64,000 nucleotides of DNA from a virus. Shown piece by piece: positions 3,299 to 53,493 of this stretch. The position numbers and the translations under genes were made by a program. Position 1 is the stretch's first letter; every line of letters begins with the position of its first letter. Under the pieces are notes generated by a model. That model saw only the letters and a program-made list of their open reading frames with translations. It had not been told where the DNA came from and did not search any database. The stretch is from positions 124,001-188,000 of the IMG/VR virus record IMGVR_UViG_3300023174_003901, one strand, 5' to 3'.

Positions 3299-3519
3299 CA
3301 GAACCTCGATGCAAAGCGACGTGTGTCTTCGTCCCACATGTTCTTGGCAGTCTTGCCCTGGACATGTTTATTAAACTGCTGGAACGCATAACTGCGGAAG
3401 TTATACAAGTCCGCTTCGTTGAAGCGATATCCGTAGTCTTGTACAAACTCGCGATAGCGATCCAGATCCTCCCATACTTGTTGAGTTCGAGCATTGAGTT
3501 TGATTTGTGGCTTGGCCAT
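3298..3519 (-). CDS. Small conserved-looking phage protein, 73 aa
   Basis: The start MAKPQIKLNARTQQVW is chosen because AAGGAAGT lies just upstream and no equally good site precedes the longer frame. The protein is charged, has no membrane segment and contains aromatic/basic stretches (DYGYRF, FRSYAFQQFNKH). I recall similar short proteins beside structural or metabolic genes in T4-like marine phages but know no function. It is translationally coupled to the glycosyltransferase by an ATGA overlap. Confidence 0.75.
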   Translation of the reverse strand: MAKPQIKLNARTQQVWEDLDRYREFVQDYGYRFNEADLYNFRSYAFQQFNKHVQGKTAKNMWDEDTRRFASRF

Positions 3520-4129: not shown

Positions 4130-4130
4130 G

Positions 4131-7088: not shown

Positions 7089-7762
7089 TGGTTGAATACC
7101 TGTTTTATTATTTCATAATCGCGAGCATAGGCTTTTTGTACTCGCTCACACAGTTCGGGTCTGGTATTTAGACGATGTTGCAAAAATTCATGAAGTTTTT
7201 TTGTGTCTGGATTGTCATTACCATCGTTGCGATCAAGATTTATTATTAAGTCAAGTCCTAACCCGGATGCAAAATTAGCATCAAAATCTTTGTCAAGCAT
7301 AAAATAACGTCTTGTAAGACCAGGCTTTATATGTTCATAAAAATCATGTTGAGGCCACACATGATCATCAAATCTAAACACATTGTCAAATATCAATCGT
7401 TCAGTAGTTTGATTGTAACAACTAATAAAATCATCAGCAGTCATACTATAATCTTCTGCCCCTTCGAGCATGCCCGGAAACACAGGACCATTGGGTCCTA
7501 CCGGACACAACACATAAGTTTTGAGATATTGACTCATACCACTAACCCATCTTGTCAACGGGTCTCTCAGGATCACAACTATCTCTTTCAAATCAAGCCA
7601 GGTGTCATTGGTTACCACAGCAGTCTTCCACTTGAATCTAGTGGTCCAATCTAGCACATAACTACTGGCATTTTTTGGTATATTAACAATGAATTTAGTA
7701 TTGTCAGGACTTATCATTCCTGAACACTCACCAAAACCTCGATTTGATAATGCTAGGTTCAC
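7085..7762 (-). CDS. Sulfotransferase-family protein
   Basis: A 225-residue protein with both halves of the PAPS-binding signature of carbohydrate-type sulfotransferases: FIVNIPKNASSYVLDW (about 24-39, 5'-phosphosulfate loop of the IPKxGSS type) and VVILRDPLTRWVSGMSQYL (about 62-80, RDPxxRxxS 3'-phosphate loop). The start is a GTG overlapping the clamp-gene stop as GTGA. It stands between the DNA sliding clamp and dpdA. This is the clearest sulfotransferase of the set in this window. The acceptor is unknown. Confidence 0.78.
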   Translation of the reverse strand: MNLALSNRGFGECSGMISPDNTKFIVNIPKNASSYVLDWTTRFKWKTAVVTNDTWLDLKEIVVILRDPLTRWVSGMSQYLKTYVLCPVGPNGPVFPGMLEGAEDYSMTADDFISCYNQTTERLIFDNVFRFDDHVWPQHDFYEHIKPGLTRRYFMLDKDFDANFASGLGLDLIINLDRNDGNDNPDTKKLHEFLQHRLNTRPELCERVQKAYARDYEIIKQVFNQ

Positions 7763-25548: not shown

Positions 25549-26586
25549 TTATTTTTTGCGACCTGCACAATGAGCACGTTGACTAAAACCTCGAGGATTG
25601 GCACAATTGATACTGCTCTTGTACTTTTGACTCCACTTTTCTTCTATGTAGTCTTCACTGACCGGAGTATCTGCGGCAGTCCATTCAAAATCACTGTCAC
25701 GCACTCCAAACTTTTTGCTGAGTTTGGCCAGTAGTGCATCCAGTACTGTTGCGGGCACATTCTTGGCCACCACACGCCGGCCACTACTGCGAGGATCAGG
25801 ACGATAGAATATGTCAATTCGTTTGGGATTAACATTGTGTGTTTCATCTACATTGTTGCTGTTCAATTGGTCTTCAATATCACTGCCAATTTCGTGTCCG
25901 GCCACACGCATGCCCAGTGTGCCCATGGTTCCAAGTTCTGTGGCGGCGGCCAGTCTTCCGCCCAAGGCCGCACCCAGTGCAGGTAAGAATTCATTCAGTT
26001 GTTCACCAATGGCTGTGTCCAACATTTTAACAACTGTGGCTGCCAGTTTAGGATTGGTTTGTGTTTTGGGATAAAGGCTCATTACCAAGGCTGTCTTGCG
26101 TTTGTCATTCAGTGTGGGCCAGGCAGTACGAATTTCTGTAGCCGACGTCATGCCAGGACCAAACTCCACAGTGGGCAAGTAAGTCATGTAAGCGTGTCGG
26201 TTCATGGGATAAAGAACGTCTTGTCCTGCCAGTGGTTGCAGATACGCTGGGTTGCCATCTTTTTTGATGCCACCTGCTTGTGGCGGCTTGTTGGCGTCTT
26301 TTTCTGAACGCACAAATATCAATTGTGTATCTTCGGGATTGTAATTTTTGGTAATTTCTTCAGCACGAAATGGTGATTTAACTTGATAAAAGTCTCCGGG
26401 CTTGACTCCAGCCAACTGGGCTAGTTTTTCTTTTATTTTAAAAGGAAACGGACGCTGACTTGTGTCATTGGTGGCAGCCACTTTGATATCGGCACCAGGA
26501 AACGCTTCTTGTGCAGATTGATAAAGTGCGTGGTGTCCGGCGTGAAAAGGATGAAATCCGCCAGGCATGATAACCAATTGTTTCAT
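25549..26586 (-). CDS. Cytidylyltransferase-like nucleotidyltransferase with phage C-terminal module
   Basis: A 345-residue protein starting MKQLVIMPGGFHPFHAGHHALY, with the nucleotidylyltransferase HAGH at 15-18. A second motif, SATEIR near residue 148 (GPGMTSATEIRTAW), corresponds to the family's ISxTxxR. A middle Ala/Gly-rich segment follows, then FYRPDPRSSGRRVVAKNVP. The C-terminal WSQKYKSSINCANPRGFSQRAHCAGRKK is a module that I recall from several phage proteins and is probably zinc- or DNA-binding. The longer frame (12 more residues) is rejected because a late box lies inside it. Confidence 0.75.
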   Translation of the reverse strand: MKQLVIMPGGFHPFHAGHHALYQSAQEAFPGADIKVAATNDTSQRPFPFKIKEKLAQLAGVKPGDFYQVKSPFRAEEITKNYNPEDTQLIFVRSEKDANKPPQAGGIKKDGNPAYLQPLAGQDVLYPMNRHAYMTYLPTVEFGPGMTSATEIRTAWPTLNDKRKTALVMSLYPKTQTNPKLAATVVKMLDTAIGEQLNEFLPALGAALGGRLAAATELGTMGTLGMRVAGHEIGSDIEDQLNSNNVDETHNVNPKRIDIFYRPDPRSSGRRVVAKNVPATVLDALLAKLSKKFGVRDSDFEWTAADTPVSEDYIEEKWSQKYKSSINCANPRGFSQRAHCAGRKK

Positions 26587-26591
26587 ACCTG

Positions 26592-26599
26592 TATTTAGC
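26592..26599 (-). promoter_or_regulatory. Late-promoter-like box GCTAAATA
   Basis: Minus-strand CGCTAAATACAGGT immediately before the ATG at 26586; the AGG in the same stretch is the only Shine-Dalgarno sequence. The same GCTAAATACAG string occurs before the fibre gene at 63808-63815. Confidence 0.5.
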
Positions 26600-26600
26600 G

Positions 26601-27035
26601 TTACATGTTTTCCAAAAGCCACAAGTACACAGGCGTGGCAAATTCTAACTCAATTGTGCCATTGCAACCCATATCGCCAAAGAATTGATCTTGGATTTCG
26701 GGACCTGTACCATTGAGATTGTGTCGATAAACAGCATGGTCATGAACAATTTGTGTACAATCAATTTCGTCAAACAAAATTTCAGTCACGCTTAATAATG
26801 AATCAGACACAATGTTGCCTTGATCATCAACTTGGGTATGTTCAGGTAGTTTGTTTTTTAGTGTGATACGCAATGAGTGCTTGCCATCGTCATCACTGAA
26901 TTCATGCGCAACAACTGTAGGATCGTTCACGTGATCCTGATCAAACACACAGGTATTGTCAATCCACACTTCACAACCCAGTGACATGGCAGTATTACTA
27001 GGGGCCACAACACAGGAAAATTTTACAGTATTCAT
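26601..27035 (-). CDS. Beta-rich phage protein, 144 aa
   Basis: Soluble, acidic protein with repeated strands (FSCVVAPSNTAMSLGCEVWID, HSLRITLKNKLPE) and a C-terminal GTIELEFATPVYLWLLENM. The Ig-like strand order and its position beside other small virion-type genes suggest a tail or head accessory. I recall similar C-termini in cyanophage proteins; the function is unknown. It is preceded closely by 27039-27416. Confidence 0.65.
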   Translation of the reverse strand: MNTVKFSCVVAPSNTAMSLGCEVWIDNTCVFDQDHVNDPTVVAHEFSDDDGKHSLRITLKNKLPEHTQVDDQGNIVSDSLLSVTEILFDEIDCTQIVHDHAVYRHNLNGTGPEIQDQFFGDMGCNGTIELEFATPVYLWLLENM

Positions 27036-35431: not shown

Positions 35432-35439
35432 TATTTAAC
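35432..35439 (-). promoter_or_regulatory. Late-promoter-like box GTTAAATA
   Basis: Minus-strand GGTTAAATACAATG, 19 bases before the DUF4337-like start. A short imperfect pairing (CTC..GTT with AAC..GAG) could reach the GGAG site, weaker than at the four clear stem-loops. Confidence 0.45.
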
Positions 35440-36427
35440 CACGAGCAGGGAAATAATCTTCTACTGTGCTTTGACGGCGTATGTCCACGGTCAAGCAGTG
35501 CATGGCACCGTCCCAGAAACTTCTGGTGCGAAATGGCACCCAGTGTACTGTTATACCGCGACGGGACAGTTCTTCTGCTAGTTTTTCATTCTCTGCTAAC
35601 ATAATTACATTTGATTCATTTATACTCAGGCAGTTTAATTCAAAATAGGTTTCTGTGTAGTTGCCCACCCAGTCCTGGGCATGCTGAACAATGTGATCGT
35701 TGAACATGCGATTTGTGCCCACGGTGGTGTCATAAAACTTGCCATTGTACACAGGATAAGGTTGCTGGTAGCCTATGCTGGGGTGTGCATGATACGTGGG
35801 GTTGTCTAGATATATGATTTCCCAGCCGGGAAATGTGCGTTCGTATCCGTTGAAATAATGATTGGCCAGGATCAGTCCAGGCTTTAACACAGCAAAACAC
35901 CCGTCCATGTGCCCACCGTTCTGTTCTACCTGCACTCGATATTCAGGCCACCAATTGCGATACTCAATGTCAAATACATCTGTGTCCAACACAATGTCGC
36001 GACCCACACGCACAACATTGGCACCGTGTACAAACCTATGCGGACTGGTCATTTGCTGGCATCTTGGGTCTTGAACATATTGATCAATGATCCAATCCCA
36101 ACAACTGCCTGCAGAATCCGTTTGATACAGAGTGTGACCAATGACCACATGATCGTCCCGGGGCACAATGGGTGGCTTTTGTAATATGCCGTTTTTTAAA
36201 TGATTGTCTATGCTTGTGAATTGTGGCCGTTGCACCGTCACATTGAATGATTCAATTGTGCGTTGTATTGAATTCAAATCCTCTTGTGTTATTTCAGTTA
36301 ATTGTTGAAATACATCTCTAATCTCTGGGGCAAAATGCTCATACCAGGACGCAGGATAAACATCTCCCAACCAACATTCTTCCAGTTGTGACCACGAGTT
36401 GTGACTGTTGATAGTCGGTAATGTCAA
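35435..36427 (-). CDS. Amidinotransferase-like enzyme (GME superfamily)
   Basis: A 330-residue protein of the glycine/inosamine amidinotransferase type. The N-terminus NSHNSWSQLEECWLGD is the family's SxxEWDxLxExxVG entry. GGHMDG (171-176, His173 and Asp175) and SFWDGAMHCLTVDIRR with Cys311 supply the catalytic His/Asp/Cys. KPPIVPRDDHVVIG (84-97) corresponds to the substrate-binding RPRD loop. It would move an amidino group from arginine to an amine. No partner is seen nearby; it lies between a membrane protein and the endolysin. Product unknown. Confidence 0.82.
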   Translation of the reverse strand: MTLPTINSHNSWSQLEECWLGDVYPASWYEHFAPEIRDVFQQLTEITQEDLNSIQRTIESFNVTVQRPQFTSIDNHLKNGILQKPPIVPRDDHVVIGHTLYQTDSAGSCWDWIIDQYVQDPRCQQMTSPHRFVHGANVVRVGRDIVLDTDVFDIEYRNWWPEYRVQVEQNGGHMDGCFAVLKPGLILANHYFNGYERTFPGWEIIYLDNPTYHAHPSIGYQQPYPVYNGKFYDTTVGTNRMFNDHIVQHAQDWVGNYTETYFELNCLSINESNVIMLAENEKLAEELSRRGITVHWVPFRTRSFWDGAMHCLTVDIRRQSTVEDYFPARG

Positions 36428-37824: not shown

Positions 37825-39066
37825 ATGAATGTTCTAATTCTTACACCGGATGCAGTGGGCAGTACTTTGTTGCAACGTATGTTGACCATTTACATGCAAT
37901 TTCATGCGTTTGGCCGTCCAGTTATCAACCTACACGAACTGACCAATGGCCTGGCCCGATACTACAGCCCTGAATTCAATCAAGAATTGGTCAGTAAACA
38001 TGCCTTGAAAGAGTGGGGATATCATCAGTCACTGGCACAGGTGACTGAGATGTTGAGCAGTGTGGATCACTACAAAACGTCAAGACTTGCACACTATCAT
38101 ATTGTGCGCCGCGGGGACTCCGTGGCGGAACAAATTCCATTTTATAATTATCTCAATGAGAATTTTTTTGTAATTGCCTGCCGACGTGAGAACGTGTTTG
38201 AGCATGCGCTCAGCATGACTCTCAGCACTGTGACAAAAAAACTCAATGTGTACGATGTGTATGAAAAAGTAGACACTTTTTATGACATGTACAAATCTGG
38301 GATCAACCTGGATGCCACAGTATTTGAGCGCCAATTGACAGCCTACAAAAATTATCTCACCTGGAGTGAACAGTATTTTGATATTGGTGCATATTTCCAT
38401 TACGAAAAAGATATTCCCAGACTGGAACAATACATCCTAAATCTGCCGGTATTTGCCGCACAGGCCACACAGATAACCTGGGATCAAAATTTCGGGCACA
38501 GTTTCAATGACTGGAATCAAATGCACTATATCCGTAGCAATCCTAGTGCATTGTCCTGTCTGCCCGCACAGGCCGTGGAAAAATTGTTGTTGACTCTGGA
38601 TCCAGTTGATGATTATCAACAGCACAGTCAGCCAGAAATGCCGCCTGTTTATTCTGCCGCAGATCTTGCGGCGCTGCCTGAACATGTGGTCAACACCTGG
38701 ACTCGTGACGTGATCAGCCGCACAGGCATTGTGCCTTTCCTGGACTCAGAAAAACAGCAAAAACTAGCACCATATGAGTCTGGTTATGCCATGGCCAAAG
38801 CCACAATAGATCAAATGATCCAATTAGGCATAATGGTCAGTGGCCCGCCTATCAAAAAACAAACACTAGATGACAAGCACCAAATAATCAAAAATTTTGA
38901 TCAATTGATCACAGTGTACAACCATTGGATTGAACAAAATCCTGGTATTGGAGAGCCCATTGACAGTGATAAAATACAGAATCAAATATCAACAGAATCT
39001 AACTTCTGGAATTCAATTATGAATTCAAAAGATTCTGTACCTGCGTTGCTACCCATTCAGCCGTGA
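37825..39066 (+). CDS. Sulfotransferase-like P-loop protein (plus strand)
   Basis: A 413-residue protein from MNVLILTPDAVGSTLLQRML, where TPDAVGSTLLQ is a 5'-phosphosulfate-type loop. VIACRRENVFEHALSMTLS (about 115-133) fits the RxxxxxxxxS 3'-phosphate region. The C-terminal half (about 250-413) is a separate helical domain of unknown function. It is one of three plus-strand genes and converges with the SGNH gene, overlapping it by 50 bases. Starts further upstream are possible but would lie in the stem-loop; no strong Shine-Dalgarno sequence is seen. Confidence 0.65.
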   Translation: MNVLILTPDAVGSTLLQRMLTIYMQFHAFGRPVINLHELTNGLARYYSPEFNQELVSKHALKEWGYHQSLAQVTEMLSSVDHYKTSRLAHYHIVRRGDSVAEQIPFYNYLNENFFVIACRRENVFEHALSMTLSTVTKKLNVYDVYEKVDTFYDMYKSGINLDATVFERQLTAYKNYLTWSEQYFDIGAYFHYEKDIPRLEQYILNLPVFAAQATQITWDQNFGHSFNDWNQMHYIRSNPSALSCLPAQAVEKLLLTLDPVDDYQQHSQPEMPPVYSAADLAALPEHVVNTWTRDVISRTGIVPFLDSEKQQKLAPYESGYAMAKATIDQMIQLGIMVSGPPIKKQTLDDKHQIIKNFDQLITVYNHWIEQNPGIGEPIDSDKIQNQISTESNFWNSIMNSKDSVPALLPIQP

Positions 39067-39880
39067 GGAGATCAAAGTGCAGTCCGTCACGTGCTCGATC
39101 CAGATATTCAACTCTTATTAAATCACACAAAAACTCAGGATGACTCTGTTGTATTGCTTGAAACTCCAGCAAGCCCTTGATATCTATACCGTGTAGTGTG
39201 CGCAATTCTGTGACAATTTCGGGATAAAGATCCTGACATTCTGTTGAACTTGATGGCAACAGAATTGGCCAATTAGGATCACGTGTTTTTTGCCAGGCCG
39301 CATCAGTAAAGGAGTTATTGCTGAAGTTTGGCACAATAGATTCTATCACACGTGAATTTGCACAATGTGTACGAACCTTTTTCCTACATGAATAGAAATT
39401 TTCAAAATCCTGTATATCAGTTGACTTCACATGATGCTGACGACGATCCAGATCCGACAGGTCAGCGTCAGGGTGTTCTCGACGATGCAAATAACTCCAC
39501 ATTATCACAATGTCACTGGGTCCGGCAAGATCATATGCATCACATGCTGTTCTAGCAATCCATTCATTGCTGGCCCCGTCCATGGCCACCGTGATCACAC
39601 GGCGCTGACTGTGTTGGCTCAGCACTTGAGGCCAGGTGTGCTCAAAGCAACTGCCCAGGCCTACGGTAAAACTATCACCCAGGCACCACACAGCAGACTC
39701 TAAATCCTCCGGCCATTCCTGATCTCTAAATCCTCTGCTGTTGTATCGGTAGTCAATTGAGTGTGGCCATTGTGTGAACACTTCCCGGTCTAAACATCTG
39801 TTCAAACTGTCCATTCCAGAATAGTCAAACTGTTGGTTGGCAAGTTCAGGCAGGGTCAATGGACCATTGACTGCGTTCAT
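39017..39880 (-). CDS. SGNH/GDSL hydrolase-like protein (copy A)
   Basis: A 287-residue protein with the SGNH blocks: GDSFTVGLG (about 68-76, nucleophile Ser), VAMDGASNEWIAR (block II Gly), DIVIMWSYLHRREH (block III, where the usual Asn is replaced) and a final DRARDGLHFDLLTAEW with the Asp-x-x-His pair. SGNH enzymes remove or transfer acyl groups on glycans. The N-terminal 60 residues (LDREVFTQWPHSIDYRYNSRGFRDQEWP) match those of copy D at 51544. It is adjacent to sulfotransferase-like genes on both sides. Confidence 0.72.
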   Translation of the reverse strand: MNAVNGPLTLPELANQQFDYSGMDSLNRCLDREVFTQWPHSIDYRYNSRGFRDQEWPEDLESAVWCLGDSFTVGLGSCFEHTWPQVLSQHSQRRVITVAMDGASNEWIARTACDAYDLAGPSDIVIMWSYLHRREHPDADLSDLDRRQHHVKSTDIQDFENFYSCRKKVRTHCANSRVIESIVPNFSNNSFTDAAWQKTRDPNWPILLPSSSTECQDLYPEIVTELRTLHGIDIKGLLEFQAIQQSHPEFLCDLIRVEYLDRARDGLHFDLLTAEWVATQVQNLLNS

Positions 39881-39892
39881 ATTTGACCCTGG

Positions 39893-40117
39893 TTAATCTT
39901 TGTCTGTGACAATTACTGCCACATTATCTACCCAGACCATTCGCCCAACACAAGCAATATTCCATTTGGTTTCACCATGCTCTTGAGTGCATTCTGTGTA
40001 GGTTTCGCCAATCAATCTCACATCTTTGGCCAGATGTTCCGTACCATTTTCAAATATGCGCCAAACCAATTCTGAGCCATTGTGTCGGGTGTTGAATCTC
40101 ACGTGGTACTTATTCAA
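39893..40117 (-). CDS. Small beta-rich protein, 74 aa
   Basis: MNKYHVRFNTRHNGSELVWRIFENG followed by HLAKDVRLIGETYTEC and a KWNIACVGRMVWVDNVAVIV end: two or three strands in a simple barrel pattern. It overlaps the kinase/nucleotidylyltransferase gene by eight bases. I recall similar short proteins in cyanophages; function unknown. Confidence 0.65.
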   Translation of the reverse strand: MNKYHVRFNTRHNGSELVWRIFENGTEHLAKDVRLIGETYTECTQEHGETKWNIACVGRMVWVDNVAVIVTDKD

Positions 40118-40952
40118 GGCCCAGAGACTTTCTTATATTGGTCGCAGAGATATTGGTAATCGATTGGTCAAAGGATTCTTGCTCGATTGTGTAACCCACG
40201 TCGCGACCATAAGTGATATTAACAATATTAGGAACAACCTGAATTTCATATTGACCTTGGTATACAGTATCTAAATCCCTGCGTATGAAGTATTTAACTT
40301 GCTCAATGGCAAAAGGATTTGTGCCTTGCCAACCCTGGCAATCACGTATTTGTATAACCACCTGCCCTGTTTTGGCAATGGCACGTTCAAACAAGGCACG
40401 ATGTCCTGCATGCCACGGCTGCCAGCGACCCAGCATTTGCACAGTTTCCTTTTGCCAATCGAATGTGGGTCTACGGCGATTCTCAATTATGTGCTCGCCC
40501 ACAAATTCCACCCATTTCTCTGCGTTCTGTTCTGTAATGCGGAAATCATAAACTTCAGGTGGCACAAACATCCGGTTGGTGTCTTCAAAACGGCCTTTTT
40601 CAATTGTGTCAATCCAAATGCACCAATCTGCTTTGAAATTGTTGCGCATTTCCACCAAGGGTGCCACAAAGTCCACAATACAATAGTCAGTATTGGCTTC
40701 GTCTGCTAGGTCTCGCATGCGCAGACTTTGTCTAACTCGTCCTTCTGTTGAGAAGTCCCAATCATTGTAGTGTCTACGCACTTCGTCGGCATTGAGCCAT
40801 GCCACTGTGATTCGAGCATCAGCAATGGGTCTTAGACTGTGCTCATTGATGGGTGTGATGTGATCTTCGAGATAGCGTTTTAATCGTTCTGCAAAGTAGG
40901 TTTTGCCCGAGCCGGGCAGGCCCATTATTAATATGCGTTTAGGTGTTTTCAT
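40110..40952 (-). CDS. APS-kinase-like / nucleotidylyltransferase fusion
   Basis: A 280-residue two-domain protein. Residues 1-160 resemble adenylylsulfate kinase: Walker A GLPGSGKT (11-18), WLNADEVRRHYNDWDFS (53-69, the D.D.vR....d..Fs motif), DYCIVDFVAPLVEMR (89-103) and a lid FEDTNRMFVPPEVYDF. Residues 170-280 form a NMNAT/cytidylyltransferase-like domain: GRWQPWHAGH (175-184), NPFAIEQVKYFI and ISATNIR (268-274). In animals APS kinase is fused to ATP sulfurylase in the same order; here the second domain looks smaller and more NMNAT-like. It could make PAPS for the sulfotransferase-like neighbours, or a different nucleotide. Inference. Confidence 0.78.
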   Translation of the reverse strand: MKTPKRILIMGLPGSGKTYFAERLKRYLEDHITPINEHSLRPIADARITVAWLNADEVRRHYNDWDFSTEGRVRQSLRMRDLADEANTDYCIVDFVAPLVEMRNNFKADWCIWIDTIEKGRFEDTNRMFVPPEVYDFRITEQNAEKWVEFVGEHIIENRRRPTFDWQKETVQMLGRWQPWHAGHRALFERAIAKTGQVVIQIRDCQGWQGTNPFAIEQVKYFIRRDLDTVYQGQYEIQVVPNIVNITYGRDVGYTIEQESFDQSITNISATNIRKSLGLE

Positions 40953-41574
40953 AGTAGTTCTCCAGTATAAATTTGGCTATAGATTCATGTTCAGAATCTG
41001 AGGGGTGTTTGACATGTGGTATTAATTTATTAGTTATTAAATCATTGATAGTTAAATCCACTAATTTTATTTGTTTTGCATCACAATGTGCTTGGATTGC
41101 CTGCCGATAATTCCGAGTCTTTTTTGCCATTTCCTGGCTGTCAAAATAATTTTCAATCAAGAATGGGTACACCGCAGATAGATCATTTATCGCCTGATCA
41201 CTATCGCCGGTGAACCATGCTCCATGCTCGCGCTTGTCGTGCATTTCAAAGTTGACTAAATCAATCATGCTACTGGCCCAATTGGGCAACACAAACCAAT
41301 GTCGATTTTGATTTTTCCAATACAGTCGTTCATTGCTGGTCCACATCACAACAACAGAATGTATATTGTTTGCGCTGTGTAAATGGTCCATGACACTGTG
41401 AAATATGTATTCATTTGACGCACCACTCAAGGCAACATTTACTAGTTCTGTGTTTAATGCTCGAGACATATAAGCAGAGTAGGATCTTTTGACATTTTCT
41501 TCATGCATGAATCCGTTGTACAACTCTGCACCGTGAGTGACTGAACATCCTGACACCAGTAACTTTTGTTTCAT
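40939..41574 (-). CDS. SGNH-hydrolase-like protein (copy B)
   Basis: A 211-residue protein: LLVSGCSVTHGAELYN (GCS replaces GDS, Ser retained), VALSGASNEYIFHSV (block II), SVVVMWTSNERLYW (block III, Asn present) and KHPSDSEHESIAKFIL (Asp..His). It overlaps the following sulfotransferase-like gene by four bases and the APS-kinase-like gene by 14, so it is made with both. Confidence 0.72.
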   Translation of the reverse strand: MKQKLLVSGCSVTHGAELYNGFMHEENVKRSYSAYMSRALNTELVNVALSGASNEYIFHSVMDHLHSANNIHSVVVMWTSNERLYWKNQNRHWFVLPNWASSMIDLVNFEMHDKREHGAWFTGDSDQAINDLSAVYPFLIENYFDSQEMAKKTRNYRQAIQAHCDAKQIKLVDLTINDLITNKLIPHVKHPSDSEHESIAKFILENYYENT

Positions 41575-42191
41575 GTGTGTTTTCTACTAGCGTGTCGTGC
41601 AAGATCATCTGTGGCGTGATGTGCAATGGGTTTAAAATACTTGGCATTTGCATCCGTTGCTAATATATCCTTTAATCTGGGATCTGCTGTGGCAATTGGG
41701 AAGGCCAGTTGTTGTTGAATATTTTCTAGATATCGTTGGCCATAAAGATGCAGTAATTCATAACTCAAGAACACAGGTGCTGCCAATTGATCAAACTCTG
41801 CCAGGGCCGTGCTCAATGTAGTTGCGCCACGGACACGGGACTGTTGCATTTGAACTATGTTCTGATCACGTCCTAACACAGCAAACTTTATACGTAGACC
41901 TGCTATTTGCAATTTAGACACAAATGCTTTGAAATTGGGCACCGTAGGCACACCATTATTCATATACGGCACACTCATTGACGTCACATACCAGTCGCTC
42001 TGAGCCCATCTGTAGTATCGCAATTGATCAGGATCCTGCCAGTACTGTGCAAATGGCTCTTGATCATGTCCTATCCAATAATCCGTTAATAGTGCTGACC
42101 ATCCTGAGACCTGAGGGTGTAGGGCAAATATCTTGCTCCATAAGTGATTGCCTGCGCCTTGCGGGCCTGTTAAGATTAATATTGTTTTCAT
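41571..42191 (-). CDS. Sulfotransferase-like P-loop protein
   Basis: A 206-residue protein beginning MKTILILTGPQGAGNHLWSKIF (P-loop TGPQGAGNH) with a second region KFAVLGRDQNIVQMQQSRVRG at about 101-121 corresponding to the RxxxxxxxQSR phosphate site, and a C-terminal helical part. It is coupled to the SGNH gene 40939-41574 and to the oxygenase-like gene by ATGA overlaps. Kinase-like alternatives cannot be excluded from sequence. Confidence 0.6.
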   Translation of the reverse strand: MKTILILTGPQGAGNHLWSKIFALHPQVSGWSALLTDYWIGHDQEPFAQYWQDPDQLRYYRWAQSDWYVTSMSVPYMNNGVPTVPNFKAFVSKLQIAGLRIKFAVLGRDQNIVQMQQSRVRGATTLSTALAEFDQLAAPVFLSYELLHLYGQRYLENIQQQLAFPIATADPRLKDILATDANAKYFKPIAHHATDDLARHASRKHT

Positions 42192-42838
42192 CGGGGTAGT
42201 GCCGCTAGGTAGTCCATGGTTGCGGCAGTTCGTATGCCTGTTAATTGCAATGTCACGCGAGGATCAAAGCCTGCGTTGGCTGTGCAGTGTGGAATATTGG
42301 CCCAGTCAAATGTTGTTACATCTCCTGCCCGCCAATGGTTGTAGTGATAATTGCCGTATTCCCAGAACTGTCCTGGCTGCCACGCTGTCAATTGAATCAT
42401 TATACGCATGATGCTGTCAGGGTGTTCGGGGCTCCATTTCTGCAATTTATCTATGTGTAGATTCCATACTTCTCCAGGCTGCTGTACGTGTATGCGATTC
42501 ATGCAGTCTTCCAGTGCAAAAGCATCACTGATACGCTGTAGACTTTCAGGCATGCGCCACGTCAAATGTGAAATAGGCAAGTCCGCAGGCATGCCATTTG
42601 CCGTCAAATCATATTCTTCTTTTTCAAGTTCTTCCGGCGGCGCTTCCAGTCCTTCACCTTTGTAACCACGTGTGGCCCAGGTTGCAGGTCGTGCGTTTGC
42701 AACAATATCCGTTAAGTCGTGAGCCCACGTGGGTTCTATACAGCCCAAGTATGCAACAACCGTTTCCGGCCGATCTATTTGTTTAGGATCAAAATGATAG
42801 GTGCTCTTGGACTTTGATATTTCCCAATTTGATTTCAT
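42188..42838 (-). CDS. 2-oxoglutarate/Fe(II) oxygenase-like (aspartyl-hydroxylase-like) protein
   Basis: A 216-residue jelly-roll protein. VWNLHIDKLQKW holds H128-I-D130, the first half of the 2-His-1-carboxylate iron triad. ANIPHCTANAG gives H184, and FDPRVTLQLTG gives R194 to hold 2-oxoglutarate. MIQLTAWQPGQFWEYG and WRAGDVTTFDW are the strands in between. This spacing fits aspartyl/asparaginyl beta-hydroxylase and phage PKHD enzymes. It could hydroxylate a glycan, protein or nucleotide of the same pathway as its neighbours. Confidence 0.72.
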   Translation of the reverse strand: MKSNWEISKSKSTYHFDPKQIDRPETVVAYLGCIEPTWAHDLTDIVANARPATWATRGYKGEGLEAPPEELEKEEYDLTANGMPADLPISHLTWRMPESLQRISDAFALEDCMNRIHVQQPGEVWNLHIDKLQKWSPEHPDSIMRIMIQLTAWQPGQFWEYGNYHYNHWRAGDVTTFDWANIPHCTANAGFDPRVTLQLTGIRTAATMDYLAALPR

Positions 42839-43455
42839 ATCACTGTTACCCTTATGTTTGATTGACCATAGTTTTGGCTGTATTCACCTGGCGGCCAATC
42901 AAGATTCAATATACTGGCCAACTCGTGATTTGTCAGCGGGTGCCTTCCGTAATATTGAAGTTGTGCCGCTACTATACCTGCATTTTGCTCGCGAATTATA
43001 CCAGCCATTGTTTTTAAGTTCTTGTAATAGTCATGATACAGTGGATATGTGATGTCAAAATGGCCGCACTTGACCCACCAACCTAAACAAGCGTCATCAT
43101 CACGATGCACCAACACTATGGGGCAGTCAGGCCATGTTGCTTTGATATAATCAATATGATTGGCAAACACGTGACTTTTGATAATTCTAATTCCTGTGCC
43201 CGAAAATGGCCTATCAAATTCTGCTTCGCACTGGTCTTTTGTGTATTGATCCAATTGATCAAAGAAATGGCCGAATTCCATTCCAGGATCAAAATACGCA
43301 CCCAAGTGCATTAATTCTCGCCGGCCACTCGCATCGTGATAATATGTACGTGCGTCAGAATAGTCAGAACGATCAATATCGGAACTGTAATAAATGTTCT
43401 TTACTACACTTGACCATTTAGAGCCTGGAGCGCCAGCCACAAAGATATATTTCAT
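42835..43455 (-). CDS. Sulfotransferase-like P-loop protein
   Basis: A 206-residue protein: MKYIFVAGAPGSKWSSVVKNI (5'-loop GAPGSKWSS), an IRIIKSHVFANH segment like the usual KTH strand and IVLVHRDDDACLGWW (3'-region RxxxxxxxxW), the three core sulfotransferase blocks. It sits between the oxygenase-like gene and the Bug-type binding protein with four-base overlaps. Confidence 0.68.
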   Translation of the reverse strand: MKYIFVAGAPGSKWSSVVKNIYYSSDIDRSDYSDARTYYHDASGRRELMHLGAYFDPGMEFGHFFDQLDQYTKDQCEAEFDRPFSGTGIRIIKSHVFANHIDYIKATWPDCPIVLVHRDDDACLGWWVKCGHFDITYPLYHDYYKNLKTMAGIIREQNAGIVAAQLQYYGRHPLTNHELASILNLDWPPGEYSQNYGQSNIRVTVI

Positions 43456-44429
43456 TCTTTACTTAAATCAATTTTACTCAGCACAGGAATAAAGGCGGCT
43501 CTTAGGTCATCCATGTGTCGTTTTAATCCAGCAGGAGTTAGTTCATCTTCAGCATAAAAGATAACATTGGCATCCGTATATTCTCGATATTCTGCACTAC
43601 GAACAGCGGCTGAGAACTGTTGTTGATACCAGTCTGCGATATCCTTAGATGTACCAGGAGGCAATTGAATTGACCACGCGGCATATACGTTAATGCCAGG
43701 TGTGACTGTGTTCAATAACGGAACTGCAGGAAACTGTGGCATTCGCCTTGTGCCGGTAAATCCAATGGGCTTTACCTTGCCCCCATCAATTAATGATTTG
43801 GCCACTGCAATGGGCACAATACCAAATTCTGTTCCTATCTTACCATCCCATTGACCCACACTTTGCAGTGCAGGAACAGGGCCATTGAATTTGATGCTTT
43901 TAACAACATCCTTGTTGCCCCGGCCCTTGTCCATTAGGTATTCAAATGCAGTACGATGCGCACCGCCACCAATGGCCACATTGATATTTCTACCCGATTG
44001 AATATATTTTACAAAGTCCTGAGGAGTTTCAATCCCACTCTTTACACTTGCAACTAGTACCAATGGTGATTTACCCATTGTGAGCACATCAACAAATGAA
44101 TCGTAATTGTATTTTTTGATGTTCTTTTCCCAGATGTCGTTTGTGACATAACTGCTCATGTGGCTGGGCAGATTAATGGTGTGCCCATCATTGGCGGCTT
44201 CTAAAAACCGGTTGTTGGCAATCACACTGTCTGCGCCAGGAATGTTTTGTACAACATACACAAAGTTGGGATTGCGCTTCTGCACAATTTCAGCCAGTTT
44301 GCGGAAGGCCATTTCGTTTCCGGCCCCGGGGGTGTTGCCAATAACAACTGTGACAGGACGTGTGGGCTCCCAGGCAAATGCCATGACAGGCGCCAGTAGT
44401 GCGGCGATTAATAATTTTTTGATTGACAT
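43452..44429 (-). CDS. Tripartite tricarboxylate (Bug/TctC) substrate-binding protein
   Basis: A 325-residue periplasmic binding protein. The signal peptide MSIKKLLIAALLAPVMAFA ends before WEPTRPVTVVIGNTPGAGNE, the start of the Bug fold. VPALQSVGQWDGKIGTEFGIVPIAVAKSLIDGGKVKPIGFTG and AAWSIQLPPGTSKDIADWYQ match the family. Bug proteins capture carboxylates for TTT transporters and are greatly multiplied in Betaproteobacteria. No TctA/TctB gene is nearby, so it would depend on a host transporter or have another use. AAGGAG precedes the ATG. A host origin is likely. Confidence 0.9.
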   Translation of the reverse strand: MSIKKLLIAALLAPVMAFAWEPTRPVTVVIGNTPGAGNEMAFRKLAEIVQKRNPNFVYVVQNIPGADSVIANNRFLEAANDGHTINLPSHMSSYVTNDIWEKNIKKYNYDSFVDVLTMGKSPLVLVASVKSGIETPQDFVKYIQSGRNINVAIGGGAHRTAFEYLMDKGRGNKDVVKSIKFNGPVPALQSVGQWDGKIGTEFGIVPIAVAKSLIDGGKVKPIGFTGTRRMPQFPAVPLLNTVTPGINVYAAWSIQLPPGTSKDIADWYQQQFSAAVRSAEYREYTDANVIFYAEDELTPAGLKRHMDDLRAAFIPVLSKIDLSKE

Positions 44430-44481
44430 GCGGACTCCTTAAATAGTATTTGAAAATCAACTTTATTTACCAAAATTTCTT

Positions 44482-45207
44482 ATGAACACCAAAATTTTTA
44501 ACCTCTTAACAAAAAATTTGCAACTAGCGTTTAATTTACCCAAGTATGCAAATATTTCTATTGATGCTGATACTGTTGTACAAGACCTGCCCTGGACCCC
44601 AGCACGTTATTCAAAGTTCAAGGACGCTGTGGAAGCAGAGTTATCGTTGCCTTGCGATTATGTGGGTACATTACGAAGCATAGTAGACGATCTTTCAGAA
44701 CGTTATATTCTACGTTTCTTCAGTGAAATATGGAAGCCACGCACAGGCGACTATGAACACACAGGTTGGGAACTTGCTGATGAGATCAACAAATTAAATC
44801 CTGAGCGTGTGTTGGACGTGGGCTGTGGCTATCACCCATTCAAAGGGCGCATACAGAACATTGTTGGAATTGACCCTTACAATAACTGTGCAGATTATGA
44901 AGTTGATATCTTAGAGTACCGAGTCAAGCATCAATACGATGTTATTATTGCGCTGGGATCAATCAACTTTAATAGTCGAGACGAAATTGAGCAACGTTTT
45001 GCACACTGTGTGAGTTTGTTGAAACAGGGTGGAAAATTTTACTTACGTGCCAATCCTGGTATCACACACAAAACAGGACCTTATGTGGAAATATTCCCCT
45101 GGACATTTGAAGTAGTAAATGAATTTGCTGAGCAGTACAATTTACATTTGGATACCTACAAAAAGGATGCCAATGATCGATTGTATTTTGTCTATACCAA
45201 ACTGTGA
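44482..45207 (+). CDS. Class I SAM-dependent methyltransferase (plus strand)
   Basis: A 241-residue protein with motif I VLDVGCGYHPFKG (about 111-123), a following acidic loop IVGIDPYNN and post-motif DVIIALGSINFNSRDEIEQRF, then LLKQGGKFYLRANPG. The first 100 residues are helical. No Shine-Dalgarno sequence is visible before the ATG. It is divergent from the Bug gene and converges with an SGNH gene by 16 bases. Substrate unknown; the company of sulfotransferases suggests a surface-glycan role. Confidence 0.75.
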   Translation: MNTKIFNLLTKNLQLAFNLPKYANISIDADTVVQDLPWTPARYSKFKDAVEAELSLPCDYVGTLRSIVDDLSERYILRFFSEIWKPRTGDYEHTGWELADEINKLNPERVLDVGCGYHPFKGRIQNIVGIDPYNNCADYEVDILEYRVKHQYDVIIALGSINFNSRDEIEQRFAHCVSLLKQGGKFYLRANPGITHKTGPYVEIFPWTFEVVNEFAEQYNLHLDTYKKDANDRLYFVYTKL

Positions 45208-45836
45208 TTTTGCAGGTAGTTGGCGGCTGCAGAATGTGCCTGTTCCAATGGATGATGATATTCTGTACTAATAGCATGCCCATTGCGTTGACTCCAGGCC
45301 ACAAAGTTTGCACCGTCAAACAAATGCAAGTGTGGCGCAATTTTTTGTTGTAATTGTGCAATGCCTGGACTGATGTTCCATCTTGAATCCAGCAATAATT
45401 CGTCCATGTAAGTCATGCAAAACTTTGCTCCCACGGACTGTAGTGCTTGCACAGCACAATCAATCCAAATTAAATTGTTTAATTTGTCTGTGTATTCTGC
45501 TTGGAAGTGTCGATAATAAAATTCTGCTCGCTCATGTTGATCCCAAGGCAAGACAGAATGCCATTGATTGTTGCCAGCATACATATAGTCCCAACGATTT
45601 ACAAAAGTCCAATTGATTACATAAACATCACTGCTGTGTTGTGCCACCTGATCCAGTATGTTGTTTAGTATTTGTAAATTGCCCGATCCTGGCCTGGCAT
45701 AACACTGATACTCCAATCCTTGACGTTGGGCAATTATGGCCGGCCATGTCAATTGACTGTATTTTTTTGATTTGGTGGTAATGTCAGAAAGATCACTGCC
45801 AAAAATAAAACTGCACCCGAAACTTTTCAACTTCAT
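45192..45836 (-). CDS. SGNH-hydrolase-like protein (copy C)
   Basis: A 214-residue protein: LKSFGCSFIFGSDLS (Ser block with GCS), YARPGSGNLQILNN (block II), VYVINWTFVNRWDY (block III) and EYHHPLEQAHSAAANYL (final acidic residue and His). It resembles copy B in length and block spacing. An upstream TATAAT-like sequence is present, but no convincing -35 was found. Confidence 0.68.
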   Translation of the reverse strand: MKLKSFGCSFIFGSDLSDITTKSKKYSQLTWPAIIAQRQGLEYQCYARPGSGNLQILNNILDQVAQHSSDVYVINWTFVNRWDYMYAGNNQWHSVLPWDQHERAEFYYRHFQAEYTDKLNNLIWIDCAVQALQSVGAKFCMTYMDELLLDSRWNISPGIAQLQQKIAPHLHLFDGANFVAWSQRNGHAISTEYHHPLEQAHSAAANYLQNHSLV

Positions 45837-50606: not shown

Positions 50607-50859
50607 TTTCGTATCCGTTCTCTTTTAGTAAGCGTTCAATAATGTTTTCATAATATTGATTGTAGTAGGAAACAATTCGGTCCCAATCTCTAGGAACCAC
50701 TGTACCAACCATGCTACATTTTACTACAGAAAGGGTGCGAAAGTCAAGTATTACATTGCAAGTTTGAATGTCTCGCTTTTTTAGATTTCGGCTGATTGCG
50801 GTGCTTTCGTCAATTTGGCCATTGGGTTTTTTATAGTAGGTAATTAATAGATATCTCAT
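50551..50859 (-). CDS. Conserved-looking small phage protein, 102 aa
   Basis: MRYLLITYYKKPNGQIDESTAIS followed by NVILDFRTLSVVKCSMVGTVVPRDWDRIVSYYNQYYENIIERLLKEN: a simple ferredoxin-like strand/helix order. It overlaps the HAD gene by 56 bases and 50856-51569 by four. I recall cyanophage relatives; function unknown. Confidence 0.68.
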   Translation of the reverse strand: MRYLLITYYKKPNGQIDESTAISRNLKKRDIQTCNVILDFRTLSVVKCSMVGTVVPRDWDRIVSYYNQYYENIIERLLKENGYEIVKPEETPEVQPQTVDPS

Positions 50860-51569
50860 GCTGTACTTAAATGCTTTTGATGGTGTTGTAAATTTTTTCT
50901 GTTACGATCAACAAGTGCGTCCAACAACACAAGATTGGGTGATATTTCCAATTGATTGCACAGTTGTTTGTATGCTGCCAGAGTCCCGGTAAAATCAACA
51001 AAAAAATCTCCATACATTATTTCTAAATCTGCGCTGGGCAAATGCTTTGATTCGGCGCTTGATGTAGTTGGAACAAGTTCACTATAGGTTAATTTTCCTT
51101 GTTTGAACAAATTCAAACAATGTTTGCGTTTTTCTTTGCCTTGGTTGCCTAGCATGAACTTAATTTCAGCAAAGTCGTTGGGCCCCAACACACGATCAAG
51201 TATTTTTCTTTTGAAATCTTCAGCAATTTGAAATTCATACCCTTCACAGTTGATGCGTATAAATCTTGCCTGATTGATTTTTTTTAATATGTCTACATGT
51301 TCGGGCCATTTATACAAATGATAAGGAATACAGATGTGTTGAATATTGTGTTCACTGCAGAGATTGTTAAAATTCAACAAATATTCAGTAAAGTTTATTT
51401 GCCAATCAGGCGTGATTAAACTGTGAGAATTCAACCATTTTTGCAAATAGTTAGGATCATCCTGTGTGTTGATTTCTAACTGTTGTCCAAAATGTGCAGA
51501 CAACCAACTGGCTATGAATTCCCCGCCTGCACCTTCCTGATAATCAATTACAATTAGTTGTTTGAGCAT
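50856..51569 (-). CDS. Sulfotransferase-like P-loop protein
   Basis: A 237-residue protein starting LKQLIVIDYQEGAGGEFIASWLS, where DYQEGAGGEFIA is a P-loop of the sulfotransferase/kinase type. ARFIRINCEGYEFQIAEDFKR may be the second phosphate strand, and LEIMYGDFFVDF a later strand typical of the family. It overlaps an SGNH-like gene by 26 bases, repeating the sulfotransferase/SGNH pairing of 37.8-45.8 kb. A tentative assignment. Confidence 0.55.
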   Translation of the reverse strand: MLKQLIVIDYQEGAGGEFIASWLSAHFGQQLEINTQDDPNYLQKWLNSHSLITPDWQINFTEYLLNFNNLCSEHNIQHICIPYHLYKWPEHVDILKKINQARFIRINCEGYEFQIAEDFKRKILDRVLGPNDFAEIKFMLGNQGKEKRKHCLNLFKQGKLTYSELVPTTSSAESKHLPSADLEIMYGDFFVDFTGTLAAYKQLCNQLEISPNLVLLDALVDRNRKNLQHHQKHLSTA

Positions 51570-52119
51570 GACTTAACGATTTTATTGTTTTGGCCCAGAT
51601 CTTGTGAGTGTTTGGTCCTGGGTGAGTACCTGAAACATCTTGATCACACGATGGCATGAGATTGATAGCCTTGGATCGCGATTGTCCAGAACTGATATGC
51701 AAACAACCAGGTGCCAGGATTTTGACCTGTTGAATCAGTGCATCAACATCTTCTTGATCTCGATCAATCCAAAAAAATACAATACGAGTTGTTGGTGTGT
51801 AGCATGTTGATTCAACAAAATTTGACAAGTTGGTCACACTGTGATGATTCATGTAATTGCCCGACAATCCATAATTTTGACTGCGTTCAAACTGTGATGT
51901 CAATATATCCAATTCGGCAACACCAGTTCCAAACACAATGCTGTTGCCAAAAAATGCCCAATCTGCTGGCCAATTGTAGTTTTGACTATGCCGATACCCT
52001 TGATTATTAAATCGATATTCAATCAACCCAGTGGAATCTTTACCCCATGCACGTACAGTCTGACCACGATGGTTCCATGCTGGTTGATAACAGTTGTTAA
52101 TTGATTTGTCCAAGTTCAA
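51544..52119 (-). CDS. SGNH-hydrolase-like protein (copy D)
   Basis: A 191-residue protein. Residues 10-50 (YQPAWNHRGQTVRAWG, EYRFNNQGYRHSQNYNWP) match the N-terminal part of copy A. The blocks: WAFFGNSIVFGTGV (GNS in place of GDS), YGLSGNYMNHHSVTNL (II), TRIVFFWIDRDQED (III), and THPGPNTHKIWAKTI (His). The nucleophile block is weakened, so activity is uncertain. It overlaps the clamp-loader gene by 23 bases. Confidence 0.62.
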   Translation of the reverse strand: MNLDKSINNCYQPAWNHRGQTVRAWGKDSTGLIEYRFNNQGYRHSQNYNWPADWAFFGNSIVFGTGVAELDILTSQFERSQNYGLSGNYMNHHSVTNLSNFVESTCYTPTTRIVFFWIDRDQEDVDALIQQVKILAPGCLHISSGQSRSKAINLMPSCDQDVSGTHPGPNTHKIWAKTIKSLSHAQTTNCN

Positions 52120-53020
52120 TCAAGGTAGCACTCAAGTTGATCTCTTGATCAGCCACTAGAGGAATTTTAGCAATGCCATCACGAATGATCACAATGGCTT
52201 GATCCTGCTGTTCAGGGGTCTTTCCAAACAAGTCCAAGTTGTTGTACATCCATGTGAATATTTCATTGGCTTCTTCCGGCGTGGAACTTTGACACATGAG
52301 TGTTCTTGCGTCGCGAACTCTGCCTTGTTTGAACAGGTCCACACACTCCAGTCGCCAGTCGCCCATGCTCTTGTCCGCGGCCTTGGGTGCAATCAATTGT
52401 CCTGACTGGCTGTTGGGCTGTAACAAGTTCAGGCACTTGCGTAGATCTGGGTACGTGGCCTTGACATAGGTGTCCAGCACATCAAGATCAAACTCCACAC
52501 CTTCTGTGACCAGCACAGTTGCGGCTCTGGCAGTGAACTCTGTGTGATCAGTTTTGGCAATGTGAAACCCTTGGCAACGTGAGTGCAAAGGTGGAATAAT
52601 CTTTGATGGATAGTTGCAAGTGAGAATGAAACGAACAGTTTGGCTATAGTCTTCCATCAAGTTGCGAAGTGCTGGTTGAACTGTGTTTACTCCTAGATAA
52701 TCAGCCTCATCTACCAGCACAATTTTTAATTCACCAAACGGCATGGTCTGACAGAATGATATCAATTTGTCTACCCAGGCAATCACACGACCTTCTTTGG
52801 AACCATTGGCATACATCACATCATATTCATCCACACCCAGTTGATTGATCAGCAGTTTGGCCAAGGTTGTTTTGCCTGTGCCTGCTGGACCCGACAACAA
52901 CAGATGCGGAATACTTTTATCTTGAATCCATTGCTCAACTTGTTCACGTTGTGCATCGTCCACAAACACATAGCCATCTACAGTTTTTGGCCTATACTTT
53001 TCTACCCATAGTTCTTTCAT
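52097..53020 (-). CDS. 44: Clamp-loader large subunit, T4 gp44-like
   Basis: A 307-residue AAA+ protein (T4 gp44 is 319): KYRPKTVDGYVFVD entry, Walker A GPAGTGKT (44-51), VDEADYLG Walker B (103-110), sensor-1 TCNYP (134-138) and the SRC arginine finger (147-149), then helical lid and collar. gp44 makes a tetramer that loads gp45 with one gp62. No gp62 is seen in the window. Confidence 0.92.
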   Translation of the reverse strand: MKELWVEKYRPKTVDGYVFVDDAQREQVEQWIQDKSIPHLLLSGPAGTGKTTLAKLLINQLGVDEYDVMYANGSKEGRVIAWVDKLISFCQTMPFGELKIVLVDEADYLGVNTVQPALRNLMEDYSQTVRFILTCNYPSKIIPPLHSRCQGFHIAKTDHTEFTARAATVLVTEGVEFDLDVLDTYVKATYPDLRKCLNLLQPNSQSGQLIAPKAADKSMGDWRLECVDLFKQGRVRDARTLMCQSSTPEEANEIFTWMYNNLDLFGKTPEQQDQAIVIIRDGIAKIPLVADQEINLSATLIELGQIN

Positions 53021-53493
53021 TGCTTCAATGCCTTTATTGTTTCTGCTGCCACTACTCTTTTACGTAAACTTGAACTGGAGAACGAATGATCTCTGCCGTT
53101 GAACACCAGTTCAATCCCGCGCATGCCACATTCCTCATAGCCAGAAAAGTTTTGGTGTTGATATTCCACACCCAGCACACGAACATCAACTGGCAGGATC
53201 AGCAACAAGTCCACAAGATCTTGTTCGGTTTGGTATACAACAACTTCATCAACGTAACGGCATGCGGCCAACTGTATCTGTCGCTCAACAATACTTTGTA
53301 TAGGGCGATTTTTGGTGTCTGGCCGATCGATAGTTGGGTCCGTTTGTAACCCACAGATCAGATAGTCACAATGATTCTTGGCTTCACTCAGCATGGCAAT
53401 GTGGCCTGCATGTGGGCCCATGTCAAAGGTTGAGAAAGTAATGCCAATGCGCTTACCTTCTGATTTGAGTTGTTTGATGTGGTTGAATATCAT
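53017..53493 (-). CDS. Glycerol-3-phosphate cytidylyltransferase-like protein
   Basis: A 158-residue nucleotidylyltransferase: GITFSTFDMGPHAGH with HAGH (28-31), GLQTDPTIDRPDTKNRPIQS, and a final FSSSSLRKRVVAA holding SSSxxR. It is similar to TagD and ADP-heptose/FAD-type enzymes of this length. The YVDEVVVYQTEQDLV stretch is the standard dimer region. Substrate unknown; overlaps gp44 by four bases. Confidence 0.8.
   Translation of the reverse strand: MIFNHIKQLKSEGKRIGITFSTFDMGPHAGHIAMLSEAKNHCDYLICGLQTDPTIDRPDTKNRPIQSIVERQIQLAACRYVDEVVVYQTEQDLVDLLLILPVDVRVLGVEYQHQNFSGYEECGMRGIELVFNGRDHSFSSSSLRKRVVAAETIKALKQ

What the first reader, a model, noticed from the sequence alone, without database searches (positions are those of the whole stretch)
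37825..45836. Alternating sulfotransferase-like and SGNH-hydrolase-like genes around an APS-kinase-like fusion
Seen: P-loop proteins with sulfotransferase-type loops (37825, 41571, 42835) alternate with SGNH-block proteins (39017, 40939, 45192), with an APS-kinase/nucleotidylyltransferase fusion (40110), a 2OG oxygenase-like (42188) and a methyltransferase (44482) gene, nearly all overlapping. Family knowledge: sulfotransferases use PAPS, made by APS kinase; SGNH enzymes edit acyl groups on glycans. Inference: a phage-encoded pathway that sulfates, deacylates, hydroxylates and methylates a host or virion glycan. I know of no described phage system with this set.
Basis: partly seen in the sequence, partly recalled or inferred. 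Interest (0 to 1): 0.85.

Follow-up and report, generated by a model that had tools for sequence, protein, structure and literature searches.

The report
Phage sulfation cassette with APS-kinase fusion
A phage genome carries a tightly packed gene set, shared by hundreds of uncultured phages, that looks built to make activated sulfate and attach it to something in the host or virion; its activated-sulfate enzyme looks like an unusually small two-part version that also sits in the commonest ocean bacteria.

Summary
Eight minus-strand genes form one overlapping run. The strict sulfotransferase/SGNH alternation is not conserved. What is conserved is a core: methyltransferase (divergent), TctC, sulfotransferase-like 42835 and 2OG-oxygenase-like 42188, often with 41571 and the fusion. 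Of 41 distinct related loci, 39 keep the oxygenase, 39 the methyltransferase, 33 TctC and 19 the fusion. No cultured phage searched has the set.

The fusion's N-half is APS kinase by sequence and fold; its C-half is NadM-like, not ATP sulfurylase. The same pair, usually as two genes, is chromosomal in 118/199 SAR86-order and 231/297 SAR11-order genomes. None of 24 such genomes has Sat, and bona fide sulfotransferases adjoin it in several lineages. In SAR86 it tracks sulfotransferases strongly; in SAR11 it does not.

Best reading: a phage sulfation cassette with its own PAPS supply. The C-half acting as ATP sulfurylase is inference. 42835 is weakly supported as a sulfotransferase; 37825 and 41571 rest on loop motifs only. 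Acceptor unknown; the glycan is unproven.

The parts
40110..40952 (-). FUS: APS-kinase-like P-loop domain (about residues 5-157) fused to a NadM/NMNAT-like HxGH nucleotidylyltransferase domain (about 160-280); candidate PAPS supplier
   Evidence: Pfam APS_kinase 26.1 bits (cut-off 21.1); profile hits PDB APS kinase 2yvu E 5.8e-8 and NMNAT 2qjt E 8e-8; Foldseek best hits APS kinases, prob 1.0; at least 597 viral contigs
39893..40117 (-). s75: small conserved ORF (74 aa, TTG start) overlapping the end of FUS; in other phages the slot is often taken by DUF2061 (PF09834)
   Evidence: homologues directly downstream of FUS in 13 cases, usually 4-nt overlap; no Pfam hit; DUF2061 identified in L023
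42835..43455 (-). ST42: sulfotransferase-like P-loop protein, core of the cassette
   Evidence: Sulfotransfer_3 in 26 of 34 members; AF2 pLDDT 90.5; Foldseek PDB top hits are sulfotransferases but E 0.017 and TM about 0.4; BFVD relative named Sulfotransferase family, 69% id; at least 264 viral contigs
42188..42838 (-). OG42: 2OG-Fe(II) oxygenase-like protein
   Evidence: H128, D130, H184 and R194 invariant in 25 sequences; weak Asp_Arg_Hydrox and 2OG-FeII_Oxy_3 hits; 4-nt overlap with ST42 in 64 of 75 cases
43452..44429 (-). TctC-family periplasmic solute receptor with N-terminal signal-like sequence, first gene of the minus-strand run
   Evidence: Pfam TctC E 2.4e-17; PDB TctC/Bug receptors E down to 1e-11; within 5 kb of ST42 in 33 of 41 loci
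44482..45207 (+). MT44: SAM-methyltransferase-like protein, divergent from the operon
   Evidence: weak Methyltransf_23/25 hits; near ST42 in 39 of 41 loci, always on the opposite strand; VLDVGCGY motif invariant
41571..42191 (-). ST41: P-loop protein with sulfotransferase-like GPQGSGNH loop and RD motif; function unproven
   Evidence: invariant G9 P10 Q11 G12 G14 N15 H16 and R108 D109; at least 586 viral contigs; no Pfam or hhalign support
37825..39066 (+). ST37: P-loop protein with TPDRVGSTLLQR loop and R121...S130; sulfotransferase-like by motif only
   Evidence: loop and R/S near-invariant in 31 sequences; at least 117 viral contigs; no Pfam, PDB or hhalign support
39017..39880 (-). SG39: SGNH/GDSL-like hydrolase
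   Evidence: Lipase_GDSL_2 E 0.005; GDSFT and DxxH blocks
40939..41574 (-). SG40: SGNH-like protein, found in this window only
   Evidence: Lipase_GDSL_2 E 0.0016; family of two entries, both the window itself
45192..45836 (-). SG45: SGNH-like protein (GCSF block, ExxH at the C-terminus)
   Evidence: conserved S, G50, N53 and H in alignment; no Pfam hit

Best explanation
A phage-encoded sulfation cassette with its own activated-sulfate supply. FUS makes PAPS: its N-domain phosphorylates APS, and its C-domain, paired with it in cells as well, most likely makes the APS from ATP and sulfate (inferred). ST42, and possibly ST41 and ST37, move the sulfuryl group from PAPS to an acceptor made or altered by the 2OG oxygenase, the methyltransferase and the SGNH enzymes. 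TctC, exported to the periplasm, would feed a host TctAB-type importer. Shown: gene content, coupling, conservation, APS-kinase fold, and the FUS-sulfotransferase link in bacteria. Inferred: both catalytic activities, the joint pathway, and the acceptor (host surface, virion or small molecule).
For: FUS N-domain: Pfam APS_kinase above cut-off, PDB APS kinases by profile and by fold, prob 1.0. FUS in bacteria: 197 genome contigs, split into a 136-aa kinase and a 130-aa nucleotidylyltransferase in SAR86, with DUF2061 beside it in five loci. Bona fide sulfotransferases adjoin it: Sulfotransfer_3 127.8 bits (L231, same position in related loci), Sulfotransfer_2 42.5 bits (L166), TPR-Sulfotransfer_3 142.9 bits (L167); in phages L034 (38.2 bits, immediately upstream), L021 (62.3) and L040 (66.0). 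24 FUS genomes: no Sat, clear PAPS_reduct in 4, Sulfotransfer_3 in 22 versus 2 of 14 controls, FUS kinase the only APS_kinase hit over cut-off in nearly all. SAR86 order: sulfotransferase in 112/118 FUS+ versus 19/81 FUS- genomes. Canonical APS kinase in 1/24 FUS+ versus 16/56 FUS- sulfotransferase+ genomes, p 0.016. Cassette conservation and 4-nt overlaps.
Against: In the SAR11 order FUS and Sulfotransfer_3 are not associated: 144/231 versus 37/66, OR 1.3, p 0.39. The C-domain's sequence relatives are NMNATs, not ATP sulfurylases, and its AF2 model is poor. 22 of 41 ST42 loci have no FUS within 5 kb. ST41 and ST37 have no family-level support. The SAR86 statistic is not corrected for phylogeny or genome completeness. 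FUS also sits in phages where no sulfotransferase was seen within the fetched flank.
Confidence: 0.6

Rival explanations
1. FUS is an APS kinase whose C-domain does something else (NMN- or other adenylyl transfer); APS comes from the host's own ATP sulfurylase in phages, or from AprBA run in reverse in SAR11.
For: C-domain groups with NadM/NMNAT. SAR11 carry AprBA, which can form APS from sulfite and AMP, plus cysC and cysQ without sat or cysD in most strains (PMC5069961).
Against: The two halves stay adjacent in two bacterial orders; the 24 FUS genomes tested have no Sat, and a clear PAPS_reduct match is present in only 4 of them. AprBA was not tested in SAR86.
Confidence: 0.3
2. FUS is a standalone nucleotide or NAD-type salvage enzyme (NadR-like: kinase plus NMNAT) or a counter-defence enzyme, and its place beside sulfotransferases is secondary.
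For: Domain pair recalls NadR in reverse order (from general knowledge); strong conservation as a lone gene in many phages; no FUS-sulfotransferase association in SAR11.
Against: Kinase fold best hits are APS kinases; sulfotransferase adjacency in several unrelated bacteria and phages.
Confidence: 0.15
3. The cassette is a general surface- or metabolite-tailoring island in which ST42/ST41/ST37 are P-loop kinases or other nucleotide enzymes rather than sulfotransferases.
For: Foldseek hits for ST42 mix sulfotransferases with kinases at E above 0.01 and TM about 0.4; no profile support for ST41 or ST37.
Against: Sulfotransfer_3 matches in 26 of 34 ST42 members; top PDB hits are sulfotransferases; APS-kinase gene in the same operon.
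Confidence: 0.2
4. Sulfur assimilation auxiliary genes, as phage cysC has been read in freshwater phages.
For: Published reading of 62 freshwater phage cysC genes (PMC10914622).
Against: No PAPS reductase gene seen in the window ORFs; the gene's neighbours are sulfotransferase-like; FUS is common in SAR11, which lack assimilatory sulfate reduction (PMC5069961).
Confidence: 0.05

Closest known systems
Animal PAPS synthase (PAPSS: APS kinase + ATP sulfurylase)
   Same: N-terminal APS kinase joined to a C-terminal HxGH-superfamily nucleotidylyltransferase (the superfamily link is from general knowledge)
   Different: 280 aa instead of about 630; C-domain related to NadM, not to ATP sulfurylase; usually two genes in SAR86 and SAR11
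Phage-encoded cysC auxiliary genes in freshwater phages (PMC10914622)
   Same: APS-kinase-family gene in phages, often large ones
   Different: Published as assimilatory sulfate reduction; here the gene sits with sulfotransferase-like genes. Whether those 62 genes are FUS was not tested
Phage sulfotransferases (Sulfotransfer_3) in OM43 and cyanophages (PMC10580990)
   Same: Phage P-loop sulfotransferase gene of unknown role
   Different: Here in a conserved operon with TctC, an oxygenase and a PAPS-supply candidate
TctC/Bug solute receptors of the TTT transporters
   Same: Family match and signal-like N-terminus
   Different: Phage-encoded; no TctA or TctB gene noticed in the ORFs read from the window

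Membership tests
APS kinase (CysC, PF01583) | Family profile above curated cut-off | tested here: met
   26.1 versus 21.1 bits; only profile positions 4-93 of 152 align
APS kinase (CysC, PF01583) | APS-kinase fold | tested here: met
   Foldseek prob 1.0 to many APS kinases, TMt about 0.55-0.7
APS kinase (CysC, PF01583) | P-loop, DxxR, conserved R, FxxP...R set | tested here: met
   P-loop G11-T18 (nearly all positions), D56, R59, R72, P98, R103 invariant and aligned to 2yvu
APS kinase (CysC, PF01583) | 3'-phosphorylation of APS | not testable with these tools
   needs enzyme assay
ATP sulfurylase (Sat, PF01747) | Sequence relationship of the C-domain to Sat | tested here: not met
   no PF01747 hit; profile search of PDB gives NMNATs for that part
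NadM/NMNAT-like nucleotidylyltransferase | GRxQPxHxGH and ISxTxIR motifs, profile match | tested here: met
   2qjt E 8e-8, 1f9a E 2.3e-6; motif residues invariant or nearly so
PAPS-dependent sulfotransferase (ST42) | Pfam sulfotransferase profile above cut-off | tested here: inconclusive
   21.1 bits versus cut-off 27 for the window protein; 26 of 34 members hit weakly
PAPS-dependent sulfotransferase (ST42) | Sulfotransferase fold | tested here: inconclusive
   best PDB hits 9kf1 and 3rnl are sulfotransferases, but E 0.017-0.021 and TM about 0.4
PAPS-dependent sulfotransferase (ST41, ST37) | Profile or profile-profile match | tested here: not met
   motif resemblance only
SGNH hydrolase (SG39, SG40, SG45) | Conserved S, G, N, H blocks | tested here: inconclusive
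   blocks visible; Pfam only E 0.0016-0.005 for two of them
2OG-Fe(II) oxygenase (OG42) | HxD...H plus R | tested here: met
   H128, D130, H184, R194 invariant in 25 sequences; profile hits weak
TctC receptor | Family profile above cut-off | tested here: met
   63.8 versus 27 bits

The most novel reading that the evidence does not exclude
FUS and its split SAR11/SAR86 form are a new, minimal PAPS synthase in which a NadM-like domain has taken over the ATP-sulfurylase reaction. It would explain how abundant ocean bacteria without Sat or CysDN feed sulfotransferases, and phages have moved it into dedicated sulfation cassettes.
Probability: 0.35. Interest if true: 0.87.

Novelty: new variant of a known kind. 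Interest (0 to 1): 0.72.

Why it matters
Phage sulfotransferases and cysC genes are usually listed one by one with unclear roles. Here they fall into one conserved cassette around a gene found on at least 264 viral contigs, and into one small two-domain enzyme that 231 of 297 sampled SAR11-order genomes also carry. If FUS makes PAPS from sulfate, it would help explain why sulfate-reduction-deficient SAR11 keep cysC and cysQ (PMC5069961), would question the reading of some phage cysC genes as sulfur assimilation, and makes viral sulfation of surfaces or metabolites directly testable.

Tried and rejected
Strict alternation as the organising principle: rejected, not conserved. ATP-sulfurylase membership of the C-domain by sequence: not met. 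Confirming ST41 and ST37 by Pfam, PDB profile and hhalign, also with more distant members: failed; hhalign was also blind for ST42, the profiles being shallow, so it is uninformative. Replicating the SAR86 FUS-sulfotransferase link in SAR11: failed. Cultured phages with the cassette: none; ST42 has two weak hits in single-cell marine virus records, TctC one 22% hit, OG42 none. Promoter and terminator scans: no more sites than in shuffles. Rfam and tRNA scans: nothing. Literature searches found no description of this gene set in the papers held.
Full report
1. The observation. The window is 64 kb of a 200,246-base virus record. Between 44429 and 39017 eight minus-strand genes follow each other with overlaps of 4-14 nt or a 12-nt gap: TctC 43452-44429, ST42 42835-43455, OG42 42188-42838, ST41 41571-42191, SG40 40939-41574, FUS 40110-40952, s75 39893-40117, SG39 39017-39880. 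ST37 (37825-39066) and MT44 (44482-45207) lie on the plus strand at either end, and SG45 (45192-45836) follows.

2. What each gene is. FUS: residues 6-107 match Pfam APS_kinase at 26.1 bits (cut-off 21.1), and KTI12 is also above its cut-off. A profile of 38 relatives finds PDB APS kinases first (2yvu, E 5.8e-8) and NMNATs for the C-half (2qjt, E 8e-8; 1f9a, E 2.3e-6). The AF2 model is good only in the N-half (mean pLDDT 67); Foldseek puts APS kinases in nearly all top ranks at probability 1.0. The C-half is not an ATP sulfurylase by sequence. ST42: below the Pfam cut-off alone, but 26 of 34 relatives hit Sulfotransfer_3. A confident model (pLDDT 90.5) has sulfotransferases Cpz8 and 3rnl as best PDB hits, yet with E about 0.02 and TM about 0.4, so the fold match is suggestive only. 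A viral relative at 69% identity is named Sulfotransferase family. OG42 keeps an HxD...H...R set in all 25 relatives. TctC is a clear family member. MT44 is methyltransferase-like. ST41 and ST37 have a conserved P-loop-like motif but no family support.

3. Conservation. Around 41 distinct ST42 loci with 5 kb on each side, OG42 occurs in 39, MT44 in 39 (always opposite strand), TctC in 33, ST41 in 23 and FUS in 19. ST42 and OG42 overlap by exactly 4 nt in 64 of 75 cases. SGNH genes are variable. Searches of 50,697 phage records gave no close ST42, TctC or OG42; FUS has five relatives at 40% identity or less, in Stenotrophomonas, Xanthomonas and Clavibacter phages. Downstream of FUS the slot holds s75 or DUF2061 in many loci.

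4. FUS in cells. A scan of bacterial genomes found 197 relatives; the best 80 are mostly SAR86, with SAR116, SAR11 and others. In SAR86 the two halves are adjacent genes of about 136 and 130 aa in recurring chromosomal contexts, and DUF2061 lies beside or between the FUS genes in five bacterial loci. Sulfotransferases well above Pfam cut-offs adjoin FUS in L231-type, L166 and L167 loci and in phages L034, L021 and L040. Of 24 FUS genomes none has Sat, 4 have a clear PAPS_reduct (CysH/CysD) match, 22 have Sulfotransfer_3 against 2 of 14 control genomes, and the FUS kinase is the only APS_kinase hit over cut-off in nearly all, G017 having a canonical one too.

5. Tests of the PAPS idea. SAR86 order (199 genomes): FUS in 118, Sulfotransfer_3 in 112 of those and in 19 of 81 FUS-negative genomes (odds ratio 61, p 3e-27, not corrected for phylogeny or completeness). 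SAR11 order (297 genomes): FUS in 231, but Sulfotransfer_3 in 144/231 FUS-positive and 37/66 FUS-negative genomes (p 0.39), so the link does not replicate there with this one sulfotransferase family. Complementarity: a canonical APS kinase is found in 1 of 24 FUS-positive genomes but 16 of 56 FUS-negative, sulfotransferase-positive genomes (p 0.016), and within FUS-negative SAR11 in 15/37 sulfotransferase-positive versus 3/23 negative genomes tested (p 0.04). A published study reports cysC and cysQ but mostly no sat, cysD or cysN in SAR11 strains, and notes AprBA, which can also form APS (PMC5069961). I have not shown that its cysC is the FUS kinase.

6. Mechanism. Most likely FUS supplies PAPS and ST42 (perhaps ST41 and ST37) uses it, within a tailoring pathway that also oxidises, methylates and edits the acceptor. 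The C-half as an ATP sulfurylase is inferred from its pairing with an APS kinase in genomes without Sat; it is the boldest step. The TctC role is a guess: such receptors work with TctAB importers (general knowledge), and I noticed no such importer genes among the window ORFs I read. A glycan acceptor is plausible but untested.

7. Novelty. Phage sulfotransferases (PMC10580990) and phage cysC (PMC10914622) are known singly. I found no description of this cassette or of the kinase/NadM-like pair in the papers held, which is not proof that none exists.

Noticed in passing
window 39893-40117 (-) and L023:10830-11033: The ORF directly after FUS is either a 74-75 aa protein of no known family or a DUF2061 membrane protein; both usually overlap FUS, and DUF2061 also sits by FUS genes in bacteria.
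   Followed up: partly
window 50856-52119 (-): A second P-loop protein (50856-51569) overlaps an SGNH-like protein (51544-52119) outside the finding; neither has a clear Pfam match.
   Followed up: no
window 7085-7762 (-), 3530-4168 (-): Further sulfotransferase-like P-loop proteins; 7085 resembles L047:11059-11772, which lies just downstream of FUS in another phage.
   Followed up: partly
window 53017-53493 (-) and 25549-26622 (-): Two more nucleotidylyltransferase-like genes: 53017 is CTP_transf_like at 39.6 bits, 25549 is just below cut-off.
   Followed up: no
window 35435-36427 (-): Protein with a very weak arginine-deiminase-family hit (E 0.046); relatives in L032 and L045/L047.
   Followed up: no
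window 587-3337 (-): Sugar-pathway-like genes read from sequence: aminotransferase-like, NAD-dependent epimerase-like and glycosyltransferase-like, hinting at phage glycan synthesis.
   Followed up: no
L008, L018, L045, L047: In other large phages FUS sits among radical-SAM-like, carbamoyltransferase-like and epimerase-like genes, read by eye from the translations.
   Followed up: no
L117, L118, L109, L121, L090: Some ST42 loci carry a second or third TctC-like gene a few kilobases away.
   Followed up: no
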